A stretch of 64,000 nt of DNA from Aerococcus sp. UBA6277 (GTDB taxonomy: Bacteria > Bacillota > Bacilli > Lactobacillales > Aerococcaceae). The stretch is taken from contig NZ_DJUR01000008.1 of assembly GCF_002440555.1 (NCBI RefSeq), positions 25,017 to 89,016 of the forward strand, in the 5' to 3' direction. Below are positions 38,081 through 41,792 of this stretch, one piece after another; position 1 is the first letter of the stretch; each line of letters opens with the position of its first letter. The position numbers were made by a program, and so were the translations under genes. Under the pieces are notes generated by a model that saw only the letters and a program-made list of their open reading frames with translations, did not search any database and was not told the DNA's origin.

Positions 38081-38109
38081 TTGCTTTTACTGGTGGATTT
38101 GTGTAGACT
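38081..38109 (+). promoter_or_regulatory. Promoter of the FMN-riboswitch transcript
   Basis: TTGCTT (38081-38086), 17-base spacer, TAGACT (38104-38109). A TTGACA also occurs at 38067-38072 but lacks a matching -10. Confidence 0.55.
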
Positions 38110-38134
38110 AAACTAAGTGAAAAACAAATGAAAT

Positions 38135-38252
38135 GTCTTCAGGGCAGGGTGCGAGTCCCGATCGGCGGTAAAGTCCGCGAATTACCAGGTAAAGCAGGTG
38201 ATTGAACTAGTGGAATTCTAGTACCGACTGTTACAGTCAGGATGGAAGAAGC
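38135..38252 (+). promoter_or_regulatory. FMN riboswitch (RFN element)
   Basis: Recognised from the ordered RFN core: TCTTCAGGGCAGGGTG, then CGGCGGTAAAGTCCGCGA, a central arm, ACCGAC...CAGTC, GGATGGAAGAAG. P1 is formed by TCTTC (38136-38140) and GAAGA (38244-38248). The 3' P1 arm GGAAGA can instead pair with TCTTCC (38315-38320) of the downstream terminator, which gives a direct FMN-dependent termination switch. The first gene downstream is ecfA1, not ribU or a rib gene. Confidence 0.95.
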
Positions 38253-38311
38253 GTATAGCAGGATGAACGAGACGGCGATGCAAGTCTAGCTGGACTTGGG
38301 CTTCTTTGACA

Positions 38312-38345
38312 AACTCTTCCAAGTAACGTTGGAGGAGTTTTTTTT
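38312..38345 (+). terminator. Riboswitch-controlled terminator
   Basis: AACTCTTCCAA pairs with TTGGAGGAGTT (one G-U pair) followed by eight T, 28 bases before ecfA1. The left arm overlaps the alternative partner of the aptamer P1. Confidence 0.92.
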
Positions 38346-38373
38346 AAATATATTAAGTGAGCGAGGGAACAAG

Positions 38374-39216
38374 ATGGCGAAACCGATTATTCAGGTTCAA
38401 GATTTGTCTTTTCAATATAGTCAATCAGACGAGAAATTAGCTATAGATGGCCTATCAACGACTATCTATGAAGGTGAATGGCTAGCAATTATTGGCCATA
38501 ATGGGTCGGGGAAATCGACCTTTTCAAAATTATTAGTGGGCTTACTAGAAGCCAAGTCAGGAATCATTCAGGTGGACGATAAGGTCCTTTCTATGGAGAC
38601 CTTATGGGATATCCGGAGTCAAGTGGGGCTAGTCTTTCAAAATCCAGACAACCAATTCGTTGGGGCAACGGTTGAAGATGATGTGGCTTTTGCCTTGGAA
38701 AATATGGGTATGCCGGTTGATGAGATGCATGCCCGTGTTGAGTCTGCCTTGAAACGGGTTAAAATGTGGGACTATCGCGACAGGGAACCCGCAGCCTTAT
38801 CAGGTGGTCAAAAACAACGAGTAGCTATTGCGGGTGTGATTGCTGTGGCACCGAAAATCATTATTTTAGATGAATCGACTTCAATGTTAGATCCCGAAGG
38901 GCGTGACGAATTGATGGCAGTCGTGGCGGATATCAAACAAGATAATTCCCTGACTGTGATTTCGATTACCCATGATTTAAACGAGGCGGCGGAAGCTGAC
39001 CGGATGCTTGTCTTTAAAGAAGGGCAAATTATTAAAGAGGGGACGCCAGCTGAAATCTTTACTTACGGGAATGATTTAACTGAGATTGGTTTGGATGTGC
39101 CTTTTTCCGAGCAACTAAAAAGCGCCCTTGCTAAACGCGGTGTGGCTGTGCCGGATGCATATTTTGATGAAGAAGGGTTGGGTGAATGGTTATGCAAATC
39201 GCATTTGAACAAGTAG
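38374..39216 (+). CDS. ecfA1: ECF transporter ATPase EcfA1
   Basis: 280 residues from ATG at 38374 (MAKPIIQVQDLSFQYSQ) after GCGAGGG. Walker A GHNGSGKST at 41-49, a Q-loop in VFQNPDNQF, signature LSGGQKQR and Walker B IIILDESTSMLDP. One of two ATPases of the shared (group II) energy-coupling module that powers many vitamin S-components, RibU and others. Overlaps ecfA2 by 25 bases. Confidence 0.95.
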   Translation: MAKPIIQVQDLSFQYSQSDEKLAIDGLSTTIYEGEWLAIIGHNGSGKSTFSKLLVGLLEAKSGIIQVDDKVLSMETLWDIRSQVGLVFQNPDNQFVGATVEDDVAFALENMGMPVDEMHARVESALKRVKMWDYRDREPAALSGGQKQRVAIAGVIAVAPKIIILDESTSMLDPEGRDELMAVVADIKQDNSLTVISITHDLNEAAEADRMLVFKEGQIIKEGTPAEIFTYGNDLTEIGLDVPFSEQLKSALAKRGVAVPDAYFDEEGLGEWLCKSHLNK

Positions 39217-40121
39217 GCTTTACTTACGGTGCTGGGACACCGTTCGCCAGTGTAGCCCTGCATGATATTAACGTGATGATTCCAGATGGATCATATACGG
39301 CGATTATTGGCCATACAGGGTCAGGAAAGTCTACCATTACCCAACACCTTAACGCCTTGGTACAACCCACTGTAGGCCAAGTACGGATTGGTGAGACGGT
39401 GGTATCAGCTGACTCTAAGCCAAAAAACTTGAAGAAAATCCGCCAACGAGTAGGGATGGTCTTCCAATTTCCTGAAGGACAACTATTTGAAGAAACTGTT
39501 ATTAAAGATGTCATGTTCGGTCCTATGAATTTTGGTGACGGTGAAGCGACAGCCCGCGAGAAAGCTGAAGCGGCTTTAGCAGCAGTGGGGATTGCCCCGA
39601 CTTTATTTGAGCGGTCACCTTTTGAGTTATCTGGTGGGCAAATGCGCAGGGTAGCCATTGCTGGGGTGATTGCCATGAAACCGGAAGTACTGGTATTAGA
39701 TGAGCCAACTGCTGGACTGGATCCAAAAGGTCGGATGGAAATGATGGCTATGTTCGACCGCTTGTACCGAGACCAAGGGTTGACGATTGTTTTAGTGACC
39801 CATCAAATGGAAGATGTGGCAGCATATGCCAACCACGTGATTGTGATGGACGGTGGGACTTGTGTGAAAGAAGGGACGCCAGCTGACGTCTTTGCGGACC
39901 CTGCTTGGTTAGCCAGCCACCAACTGGCTTTACCGGAAGCAGCTGATTTTGCTTTTAATCTACAAGGTAGATTAGACCGCCAGTTATGGAATGCAGCGAC
40001 TCAAGTGCCATTAACGGTAGATGCTTTAGCTGATTTAATCGTTGATAACTTGTCTTTAACGACCGGGCAAAATGACGACGACAAGTCAAGCGGACTTATT
40101 ACACAGGAAGGAGGCCAATGA
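39192..40121 (+). CDS. ecfA2: ECF transporter ATPase EcfA2
   Basis: 309 residues from ATG at 39192 (MQIAFEQVGFTYGAGTPF), the usual family start; ATG at 39186 is a two-codon alternative. Walker A GHTGSGKST, VFQFPEGQLFEET, signature LSGGQMRR, Walker B VLVLDEPTAGLDP. Pairs with EcfA1. Its C-terminus is slightly extended and acidic (NDDDKSSGLITQEGGQ). The gap to ecfT is 3 bases. Confidence 0.95.
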   Translation: MQIAFEQVGFTYGAGTPFASVALHDINVMIPDGSYTAIIGHTGSGKSTITQHLNALVQPTVGQVRIGETVVSADSKPKNLKKIRQRVGMVFQFPEGQLFEETVIKDVMFGPMNFGDGEATAREKAEAALAAVGIAPTLFERSPFELSGGQMRRVAIAGVIAMKPEVLVLDEPTAGLDPKGRMEMMAMFDRLYRDQGLTIVLVTHQMEDVAAYANHVIVMDGGTCVKEGTPADVFADPAWLASHQLALPEAADFAFNLQGRLDRQLWNAATQVPLTVDALADLIVDNLSLTTGQNDDDKSSGLITQEGGQ

Positions 40122-40124
40122 TAG

Positions 40125-40913
40125 ATGAAAGATAAATTGATTATTGGCCGGTACATTCCCGGTAATTCCTTGATGCACAAATTGGACCCACGGGTGAAAT
40201 TGGTGGGCTTGATTGTCATGATGCTATTGGTATTCGCGGCAACTAATGTCACGACCAATATCGTTATGATCGTGGTAGTCACGAGTCTAGTCTTTTTAAC
40301 TGGGATTTCTTTAAGGGTATTTTTACGCGGTTTGAAACCCATGATAGCTATTATTATTTTTACGGTAGCCCTACAAATTCTCTTTACCCACACCGGGGAC
40401 GTCCTGTGGTCATTTGGGCCACTAGCCTTAACAACTGGTGGCTTGTCTAATGCGGCCTATATTTTTGTCCGCTTCCTATTGATTATTTTTCTATCGACGA
40501 TATTGACTTTGACCACTCAACCCCTGGCTATTACAGATGCCATGGAAGCCTTGTTGAAGCCTGTTCGTAATATTTTGCCAGTCCATGAGATTGCCTTGAT
40601 GTTGTCGATTGCCTTGCGATTTGTCCCGACCCTACTTGAAGAAGCGGATAAGATCATGAACGCACAGCGGGCACGTGGTGTGGACTTTTCAGAAGGGAAT
40701 ATCCTTGAGCGGGTGAAAGCCTTTATTCCAGTCCTCATTCCCTTATTCATTTCAGCCTTTAACCGGGCTTATGACCTAGCCACTGCCATGGAAGCACGTG
40801 GTTACAAGGGCGGTGAAGGCCGGACCAAGTACCGTCAATTGCATTGGGGCAGAATAGATACCCTTGCTAGTATCGGTCTTGCTGTTTTGACTATTATCAT
40901 GATTATCTTATAG
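40125..40913 (+). CDS. ecfT: ECF transporter transmembrane scaffold EcfT
   Basis: 262 residues with several membrane helices. The coupling-helix Ala-Arg-Gly motifs are visible as NAQRARGVDF and AMEARGYKGGEGRT. Joins the EcfA1/EcfA2 pair and exchanges S-components. Ribosome site AAGGAGG in the ecfA2 end. truA follows by 21 bases. Confidence 0.95.
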   Translation: MKDKLIIGRYIPGNSLMHKLDPRVKLVGLIVMMLLVFAATNVTTNIVMIVVVTSLVFLTGISLRVFLRGLKPMIAIIIFTVALQILFTHTGDVLWSFGPLALTTGGLSNAAYIFVRFLLIIFLSTILTLTTQPLAITDAMEALLKPVRNILPVHEIALMLSIALRFVPTLLEEADKIMNAQRARGVDFSEGNILERVKAFIPVLIPLFISAFNRAYDLATAMEARGYKGGEGRTKYRQLHWGRIDTLASIGLAVLTIIMIIL

Positions 40914-40934
40914 CCAATAGAAGGAGGGCGCATT

Positions 40935-41792
40935 TTGCCTAGATTTAAAGTAACCTTGCAATACGACGGGACCCCCTTTGTCGGCTTTCAAGTTCAACCA
41001 AATGGCCATACCGTACAAGAGGCCCTTGAAAAAGCCTTAAAGCTCATGTCTAAAGGACAGACGATTCCTGTCGTTGGGTCAGGCCGGACCGATTCAGGCG
41101 TTCATGCCCTTGGCCAAGTGATTCATTTTGATTATCCAGCGGAAATCGGTGAGGAAGCGGTTTTAAGAGCCTTGAATTCAATCCTTGATGATGCTATTCG
41201 CATCACCAAGGTTGAGCGGGTGGAGGATGATTTCCACGCTCGGTTCCATACTAACGGCAAGAAGTACATCTACAAGGTAGACACTTCTAAGTTTCCGTCA
41301 CCGTTTACTAGACAGTATATGTACCACCATCCCTACCGGACGGACGTTACACGTATGCAAACGGCCTTAAAAGACATTATCGGCGTCCATGATTTTAAGT
41401 CCTTCTGTTCGACAAAAACGGATAAGACCAACTTTGTCCGGGAAATTTACCGGGCTGAGGTGACGGCTGATCCGGATGCAGAAACCTTGACCTTTGTCTT
41501 TGAAGGGTCTGGATTCTTGTATAATATGGTCCGAATTTTGGTGGGTACAACGCTTCAAATTGGTGACGGGTTAAGACCAGTTGATGAGATGAAACGGTTG
41601 ATAGCAGCTGAAGACCGGAATGAAGCAGGACCCACAGCAGCCGCACATGGCTTATATTTAGCGGAGGTTTATTACCTAGGACTAGAAGACCGCCGGCAGG
41701 TTTCCAAGGCTTATAGCGACTATAAAGCTGGTTTAGGGACGCCTATGGGTGCAAGTGTGGACTTAGATGCAGATCCAGGTGAAGACTTTTAG
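40935..41792 (+). CDS. truA: tRNA pseudouridine(38-40) synthase TruA
   Basis: 285 residues, TTG start (MPRFKVTLQYDGTPFVGFQ) after AAGGAGGG. Catalytic D53 in GSGRTDSGVHALGQV. It modifies the anticodon stem-loop of many tRNAs. The last 30 or so residues (SKAYSDYKAGLGTPMGAS... ending GEDF) exceed the usual family length. Last gene of the riboswitch-controlled operon, so its expression may follow FMN unless an internal promoter exists. Confidence 0.96.
   Translation: MPRFKVTLQYDGTPFVGFQVQPNGHTVQEALEKALKLMSKGQTIPVVGSGRTDSGVHALGQVIHFDYPAEIGEEAVLRALNSILDDAIRITKVERVEDDFHARFHTNGKKYIYKVDTSKFPSPFTRQYMYHHPYRTDVTRMQTALKDIIGVHDFKSFCSTKTDKTNFVREIYRAEVTADPDAETLTFVFEGSGFLYNMVRILVGTTLQIGDGLRPVDEMKRLIAAEDRNEAGPTAAAHGLYLAEVYYLGLEDRRQVSKAYSDYKAGLGTPMGASVDLDADPGEDF

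What the first reader, a model, noticed from the sequence alone, without database searches (positions are those of the whole stretch)
38081..41792. FMN riboswitch controls the shared ECF energizing module and truA
A complete RFN aptamer (38135-38252) and a terminator whose left arm can pair with the aptamer P1 arm lie directly before ecfA1-ecfA2-ecfT-truA. RFN elements normally control ribU or rib biosynthesis genes. EcfA1A2T serves many S-components, so FMN here would throttle uptake capacity for several vitamins at once, plus a tRNA modification enzyme. It may be a genuine rewiring, or the scar of a lost ribU between riboswitch and ecfA1.
Basis: partly seen in the sequence, partly recalled or inferred. 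Interest (0 to 1): 0.72.

Follow-up and report, generated by a model that had tools for sequence, protein, structure and literature searches.

The report
Vitamin switches before shared transporter motor
In this Aerococcus bacterium the motor shared by several vitamin importers sits behind an RNA switch predicted to sense vitamin B2 and a DNA site predicted to bind a vitamin B3 repressor, so two single vitamins may set uptake capacity for others.

Summary
Observation confirmed: a full FMN riboswitch (38131-38256, 101.9 bits) and an intrinsic terminator precede ecfA1-ecfA2-ecfT-truA. It is not a scar of lost ribU: the genome keeps ribU and a rib operon elsewhere, each behind its own RFN. RFN lies 70-210 nt before ecfA1 in 9 of 15 Aerococcus genomes and near it in none of the 60 family genomes outside the genus with a listed EcfA1.

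niaR occurs in exactly the five of 15 Aerococcus genomes with this box. TGTCWWGACA precedes ecfA1 in 41 of 74 non-Aerococcus loci; niaR was found in 26 of 26 searched genomes with the box and 8 of 23 without.

Best reading: the shared ECF motor is under joint niacin (NiaR) and FMN control. The window's aptamer keeps its FMN contacts; four ecf aptamers in other Aerococcus lineages do not. Ligand binding, polarity and repression are inferred, not shown.

The parts
38060..38075 (.). NiaR-type operator AGGTGTCTTGACATCT (TGT-N4-ACA palindrome)
   Evidence: TGTCNNGACA found within 600 nt before ecfA1 in the 5 niaR-bearing Aerococcus genomes and none of the other 10, and in A. agrisoli; the 14-mer TGTCTTGACATCTA (38063-38076) is in the B. 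halodurans nifS-nadB DNA bound by NiaR in EMSA (PMC7713382 passages)
38081..38109 (+). Promoter: -35 TTGCTT, 17-nt spacer, -10 TAGACT
   Evidence: TTGNNN-17-TANACT just before the leader in 13 of 15 Aerococcus ecf loci; weak against consensus, not listed by the general scan
38131..38256 (+). FMN riboswitch aptamer (RFN element)
   Evidence: RF00050, 101.9 bits, full length; FMN-contact positions canonical (yardstick sequence recalled)
38243..38249 (+). 5' arm of proposed antiterminator (aptamer J6/1-P1 edge)
   Evidence: 7-bp complement of the terminator left arm
38315..38321 (+). 3' arm of proposed antiterminator, inside the terminator left arm
38311..38345 (+). Intrinsic terminator (12-bp stem 38311-38340 plus T-tract)
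38374..39216 (+). ecfA1, ECF energizing-module ATPase
   Evidence: NF010156 409.5 bits and TIGR04520 377.4 bits, above cut-off
39186..40121 (+). ecfA2, ECF energizing-module ATPase
   Evidence: NF010155 424.4 bits and TIGR04521 370.6 bits, above cut-off
40125..40913 (+). ecfT, ECF transmembrane component
   Evidence: PF02361 CbiQ 167 bits, above cut-off; TIGR02454 86.8 bits, below its cut-off
40935..41792 (+). truA, 21 nt after ecfT with a ribosome-binding site between
   Evidence: TIGR00071 209.4 bits, above cut-off; spacing
35172..35249 (+). L17DE after rplQ, end of the ribosomal operon; here an acyltransferase and an Ohr/OsmC-like gene lie between it and ecfA1
   Evidence: RF01708; gene maps

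Best explanation
The operon for the shared ECF energizing module (ecfA1-ecfA2-ecfT-truA) starts at its own promoter (38081-38109) and is gated twice by single vitamins. Initiation: when niacin is plentiful, NiaR with niacin binds 38060-38075 beside the -35 box and represses. Elongation: when FMN is plentiful, the aptamer binds FMN, P1 forms, the terminator 38311-38340 folds and transcription stops before ecfA1; without FMN the J6/1-P1 edge can pair with the terminator's left arm and polymerase reads through. The same two controls sit on the matching S-components elsewhere in the genome (RFN-ribU; box-niaX), so the motor carries the switches of two of its clients. High expression is expected only when both vitamins are low; basal read-through would serve the other clients. 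Shown by sequence: aptamer, terminator, box, promoter pattern, gene order, niaR/box co-occurrence. Inferred: ligands, OFF polarity, repression, effect on uptake.
For: RF00050 match. Three RFNs in the genome: before a complete rib operon (RibD, RibE, RibBA, RibH all above NCBIfam cut-offs), before ribU and before ecfA1. RFN-ecfA1 in 9 of 15 Aerococcus genomes, the other eight EcfA1 being 59-98% identical to the window's. Terminator in all nine, promoter pattern just upstream in 7 of the nine; G011 and G012 were not covered far enough upstream. FMN-contact positions canonical in the window's aptamer (contacts from PMC7573352 and PMC10809319 passages). Box and niaR co-occur: niaR in 5 of 5 Aerococcus genomes with the box and 0 of 10 without; in named Lactobacillales 26 of 26 against 8 of 23 (Fisher 3e-7). 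TGTCWWGACA within 400 nt before ecfA1 in 42 of 78 loci against 0.05-0.16 expected. niaR, box, niaX in a row in the same genome. S-components with no A/T gene in the fetched 1.5-kb flanks: RibU, NiaX, ThiT (with TPP riboswitch), QueT, one PF12822 and one PF07155 member.
Against: No experiment. The antiterminator is short; its run is unusual in the window (1.2% of shuffled arms) but not in the five other leaders tested (7.7-40% for the better of the two aptamer ends), and the full leader folds into the terminator without ligand (0.99). A second pyrimidine stretch (38300-38308) competes for the same strand. Six of 15 Aerococcus genomes lack the RFN but keep a terminator. Four of nine ecf aptamers carry pocket changes. 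The box pattern with up to 2 mismatches is not strongly enriched genome-wide (18 and 18 against control 14 and 10). The niaR/box test is not corrected for shared ancestry, and 8 of 23 box-less genomes have niaR. Only 11 of 33 fetched niaR neighbourhoods hold a strict box, none of the Enterococcus ones. A NiaX relative (55%) occurs in A. urinaehominis, whose contig length fits G016, a genome without niaR.
Confidence: 0.68

Rival explanations
1. Scar: the riboswitch once controlled a ribU (or rib operon) between RFN and ecfA1 that was lost, leaving accidental control of the ECF module.
For: RFNs are mostly reported before rib genes or riboflavin transporters (PMC4418817 section 13; PMC3766115 passages).
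Against: ribU is intact elsewhere behind its own RFN; 13 of 15 genomes of the genus have an RFN before a ribU-like gene at another, shared site after ScpB/RluB-like genes (names recalled); no gene between RFN and ecfA1 in any of nine; aptamer and terminator are kept although EcfA1 has diverged to 59% identity.
Confidence: 0.07
2. The aptamer binds FMN but attenuation is weak or constitutive; the main control is NiaR or growth rate.
For: The terminator dominates the computed full-length fold; six congeners have a terminator-like hairpin before ecfA1 without RFN.
Against: Aptamer and terminator are both kept in nine genomes, while the terminator sequence differs between lineages.
Confidence: 0.17
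3. The operator is bound by another regulator, not NiaR.
For: In Enterococcus the core is CTGTCWWGACAG-like inside a longer dyad, and the fetched Enterococcus niaR neighbourhoods hold no strict box.
Against: 14-nt identity to a NiaR EMSA target, fit to the S. pneumoniae operator consensus at 14 of its 15 central positions, exact co-occurrence with niaR in Aerococcus, the same kind of box before niaX.
Confidence: 0.15
4. The ecf aptamer senses a flavin other than FMN.
For: FMN-aptamer variants that bind riboflavin or its breakdown products are known (PMC9788692, PMC11477304 passages); four ecf RFNs of two Aerococcus lineages have pocket changes.
Against: The window's own aptamer keeps every contact position checked, as do those of G015, G017 and G018.
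Confidence: 0.08

Closest known systems
FMN riboswitch (RFN element, RF00050) on rib operons and ribU
   Same: Aptamer fold, conserved core, transcription-terminator platform
   Different: Stands before the shared energizing module instead of a riboflavin-specific gene; the ecf module is not among the ten entries of Table 1 in PMC4418817
NiaR (YrxA) regulon: niaX, pnuC, nadC in S. pneumoniae
   Same: TGT-N4-ACA operator, niaR present, niaX preceded by a box of the same kind
   Different: Target is the energizing module; no paper seen states this (searches; the two papers holding both terms show no link in the passages found; the founding NiaR paper is not held)
Shared (group II) ECF module EcfA1A2T of Lactobacillales
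   Same: Gene order, no S-component in the operon, truA downstream
   Different: In 10 of 10 outgroup loci ecfA1 follows rplQ directly, and only 4 of 74 non-Aerococcus loci have a terminator-like hairpin within 100 nt of ecfA1; all 15 Aerococcus genomes have one within 140 nt
Variant FMN riboswitches with altered ligand (Atilho 2019, known here only through citing papers)
   Same: Pocket changes in an RFN scaffold, seen in ecf RFNs of G005/G014 and G011/G012
   Different: The window's aptamer is canonical; the changed positions were not compared with Atilho's, that paper not being held

Membership tests
FMN riboswitch (RF00050) | Covariance-model score over the curated cut-off, full length | tested here: met
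   101.9 against 66.2 bits, positions 1-138
FMN riboswitch (RF00050) | FMN-contact nucleotides (A48, A85, A99; G10, G11, G32, G62, G84) | tested here: met
   All eight present in the window's aptamer; contacts; F. nucleatum yardstick sequence recalled
FMN riboswitch (RF00050) | Expression platform switched by P1 and its flanks | tested here: inconclusive
   Terminator and 7-bp alternative pairing present; thermodynamic fold favours the terminator
FMN riboswitch (RF00050) | Binds FMN | not testable with these tools
   Needs in-line probing
NiaR regulon | TGT-N4-ACA palindrome at a promoter | tested here: met
   38060-38075, beside the -35 at 38081
NiaR regulon | niaR (HTH_11 + 3H domains) in the genome | tested here: met
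   G000:C17, PF02829 and PF08279 above cut-off
NiaR regulon | Niacin-dependent repression | not testable with these tools
   Needs EMSA and reporter assays
Shared (group II) ECF energizing module | Two ATPases and EcfT in one operon without an S-component | tested here: met
Shared (group II) ECF energizing module | Several S-components without linked A/T genes | tested here: met
   seen in about 1.5-kb flanks only
Shared (group II) ECF energizing module | S-components actually use this module | not testable with these tools
   Needs uptake assays

The most novel reading that the evidence does not exclude
The shared ECF motor is a regulatory integrator that borrows the controls of its clients: NiaR holds it down on niacin across much of the Lactobacillales, Aerococcus added an FMN riboswitch, and in two Aerococcus lineages that riboswitch has drifted toward another ligand. 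Competition among S-components for one motor would then be set by which vitamins the motor's own promoter and leader can sense.
Probability: 0.3. Interest if true: 0.78.

Novelty: new variant of a known kind. Interest (0 to 1): 0.62.

Why it matters
S-components are proposed to compete for one energizing module (abstract start of PMC7755397 in the listings); I saw no paper on how the amount of that module is set (searches, mostly listings). If the reading is right, niacin and riboflavin/FMN set capacity for uptake of thiamine, queuosine precursor and other micronutrients as well, so plenty of one vitamin could restrict uptake of another. It gives a plain prediction for a wide group: NiaR sites in front of ecfA1. 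ECF transporters are studied as drug targets (listing), and flavin analogues that hit FMN riboswitches (roseoflavin, PMC11477304 passage) would here also act on the common motor.

Tried and rejected
Scar of lost ribU: rejected, see rivals. Degenerate RFN in the six RFN-less congeners (suggested by GGCAGGG and GGCGG stretches in G007): cmscan at E up to 5 on the six short leaders gave no RF00050. Plasmid context: no near match for 37600-41900. One or several origins of the ecf RFN: the aptamer tree is weak and the AU test rejects neither monophyly of the nine (p 0.30) nor of the four outside the viridans-like clade (p 0.58), so unresolved; the four share A at position 47, seen in none of the other 25. 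This survey is partial. The RFN model also gave one 11-bit hit (E 0.95) in L056, not before ecfA1, taken as chance. The strict box in a glgC-like gene (name recalled; C30) was judged chance. Structure prediction was not used: nothing turned on it. Papers not held.
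Full report
What was given. The finding describes an FMN riboswitch and terminator before ecfA1-ecfA2-ecfT-truA and offers two readings: rewiring, or the scar of a lost ribU.

The observation. Rfam places RF00050 at 38131-38256 with 101.9 bits over the full model. A 12-bp hairpin with a T-tract follows at 38311-38345. NCBIfam gives EcfA1, EcfA2 and TruA above cut-off; EcfT is above cut-off in Pfam CbiQ but not in NCBIfam. The ecfA1 start is taken as ATG 38374 behind GCGAGGGAAC; truA begins 21 nt after ecfT.

Where the window lies. 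The closest named NiaX relative is from A. urinaeequi, 92%. The window's own strain is not named.

Not a scar. The own genome has three RFNs: before a complete rib operon (C26:99469; RibD, RibE, RibBA, RibH above NCBIfam cut-offs), before ribU (C23:42594; best PDB match the riboflavin uptake protein 3p5n, E 1.3e-25) and before ecfA1 (C26:63147). In the family survey (76 genomes, all with an RFN; EcfA1 in 75 at E up to 1e-80) the gap from RFN to the EcfA1 match is 70-210 nt in 9 of the 15 genomes of the genus. In the 61 genomes of the other 20 genera, 60 of them with a listed EcfA1, the nearest RFN on the same contig is 34.8 kb away. No gene lies between RFN and ecfA1 in any of the nine. In 80 named EcfT loci an RFN model found RFNs before ecfA1 only in three Aerococcus loci; A. 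kribbianus and the 76 non-Aerococcus loci had none there, two of the latter (L081, L116) holding under 400 nt upstream of ecfA1. The order-wide lists were cut and serve only as a partial check.

How the locus came apart from the ribosomal operon. In 10 of 10 outgroup loci ecfA1 follows rplQ, and L17DE was found upstream in 11 of the 14 non-Aerococcus loci that I scanned with Rfam. In the window L17DE lies at 35172-35249, and an acyltransferase-like and an Ohr/OsmC-like gene separate it from ecfA1; 14 of 15 Aerococcus genomes have the acyltransferase there, G016 does not. All 15 Aerococcus genomes have a terminator-like hairpin within 140 nt of ecfA1 (13 within 100 nt; that of G016 is weak, 6 bp), against 4 of 74 non-Aerococcus loci within 100 nt by the same scoring. 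A TTGNNN-17-TANACT promoter pattern sits before the leader in 13 of 15; G011 and G012 were not covered far enough upstream. So Aerococcus appears to have given this operon its own attenuated leader, and nine of the 15 have an RFN in it. The six without RFN show no RF00050 even at E up to 5; what, if anything, governs their terminator is unknown.

The aptamer. Numbered on the F. nucleatum RNA (typed from recall), the eight contact positions named in PMC7573352 and PMC10809319 (passages) are canonical in the window's aptamer. In four other ecf aptamers they, or neighbours of theirs, are not: G011 and G012 differ at 10, 47, 61 and 62; G005 and G014 differ at 47 and have a J6/1 one base shorter around 98-100; G005 also differs at 61. 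Changes at 10, 47, 62 and 99 occur in none of the 20 ribU or rib RFNs of the genus; changes at 61 also occur in rib_G009 and ribU_G014, at 98 in ribU_G014 and at 100 in two ribU RFNs. FMN-scaffold variants that bind riboflavin or lumiflavin/lumichrome, one of them an ON switch, are reported (PMC9788692 and PMC11477304, passages; the original paper is not held). Those lineages may have another ligand or a decaying switch.

The platform. The terminator's left arm can pair with the J6/1-P1 edge over 7 bp in the window (1.2% of shuffled arms reach this) and over 6 bp in G009, G011 and G012 (11-12%, not significant alone); G014 and G005 instead match the 5' side over 5 bp (40% and 7.7%). Computed on growing transcripts, the pairing peaks at 0.43 before the right arm exists and the terminator reaches 0.99 once it does. 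This fits an OFF switch that acts during transcription but does not prove it. The ribU and ribD leaders of the same genome also hold terminators.

The second input. Just upstream of the promoter lies AGGTGTCTTGACATCT (38060-38075). A pattern made from the site itself has no other match in the window with fewer than 3 mismatches. The 14-mer TGTCTTGACATCTA occurs in the B. halodurans nifS-nadB DNA that NiaR bound in EMSA in the presence of niacin, and type I NiaR sites are TGT-N4-ACA (PMC7713382 passages); the site fits 14 of 15 central positions of the S. pneumoniae NiaR operator (PMC5343564 abstract and passages). niaR (3H domain) is in G000, G009, G015, G017 and G018 and was not found in the other ten Aerococcus genomes; the box is before ecfA1 in the same five and in none of the ten. 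In G000 niaR is followed by a gene some of whose relatives are named niacin transporter NiaX, with a box between them. In 78 named loci with at least 400 nt upstream, TGTCWWGACA precedes ecfA1 in 42 (41 of 74 outside Aerococcus); 0.05 would be expected from the rest of the loci and 0.16 from shuffles. I gave 50 of the 80 loci (27 of 42 with the box, 23 of 36 without) to a niaR search; 49 genomes were held: 26 of 26 with the box have niaR, 8 of 23 without do (Fisher 3e-7). This ignores shared ancestry. Against it: the looser pattern is not much enriched genome-wide, a strict box also falls inside a glgC-like gene, strict boxes lie in only 11 of 33 fetched niaR neighbourhoods and in none from Enterococcus, so the regulator is least certain there.

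Clients. S-components with no A/T gene in the fetched flanks include RibU (RFN), NiaX (box), ThiT (TPP riboswitch), QueT, a PF12822 member, a PF07155 member and a weak ThiT-like one; two further T-components lie beside S-components of their own.

Literature. Table 1 of PMC4418817 (section 13 read) lists non-biosynthetic RFN targets and has no ecf module; PMC3766115 (passages) describes FMN regulons as biosynthesis and transporters, but its gene list is in a supplement I could not open. No held paper had both 'FMN riboswitch' and 'Aerococcus', or 'FMN riboswitch', 'energy-coupling factor' and 'ecfA'. Two held 'NiaR' and 'energy-coupling factor'; the passages found in them do not link the two. 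Further listings. Absence from print is only as good as these searches; the founding NiaR paper is not held.

Verdict. Real, recurrent within Aerococcus, and better described as a doubly controlled shared ECF motor than as an odd riboswitch.

Noticed in passing
L132-L137 (ecfA1 leaders of G006, G013, G007, G008, G010, G016): RFN-less Aerococcus genomes also have promoter pattern, leader and terminator-like hairpin before ecfA1; apart from L17DE upstream in G016 no Rfam family matches credibly.
   Followed up: partly
L008, L009, L010, L011 (ecf RFNs of G012, G011, G014, G005): FMN aptamers with changes at or beside ligand-contact positions, possibly another flavin ligand or decay.
   Followed up: partly
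L056-L125, within 400 nt before ecfA1: TGTCWWGACA palindrome before ecfA1 in 41 of 74 non-Aerococcus loci; in several Enterococcus loci it lies in the middle of a longer dyad with A/T tracts.
   Followed up: partly
window 16070-19130 (-), G000:C26:41086-44146: A second ECF transporter with its own T and ATPase components and a PF07155 S-component, next to a gene resembling SAM hydroxide adenosyltransferases (resemblance recalled).
   Followed up: no
L036 31-1450 (G000:C26, just before the rib operon): CRISPR-like array: 22 copies of an identical 30-mer at 65-66 nt spacing.
   Followed up: no
L052 6408-6522: A. agrisoli has a second RFN about 1.2 kb downstream of truA on the same strand; what follows it was not examined.
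   Followed up: no
window 11389-11520, 54286-54339: PyrR binding site (55 bits, cut-off 54) and L13 leader, ordinary cis elements.
   Followed up: no
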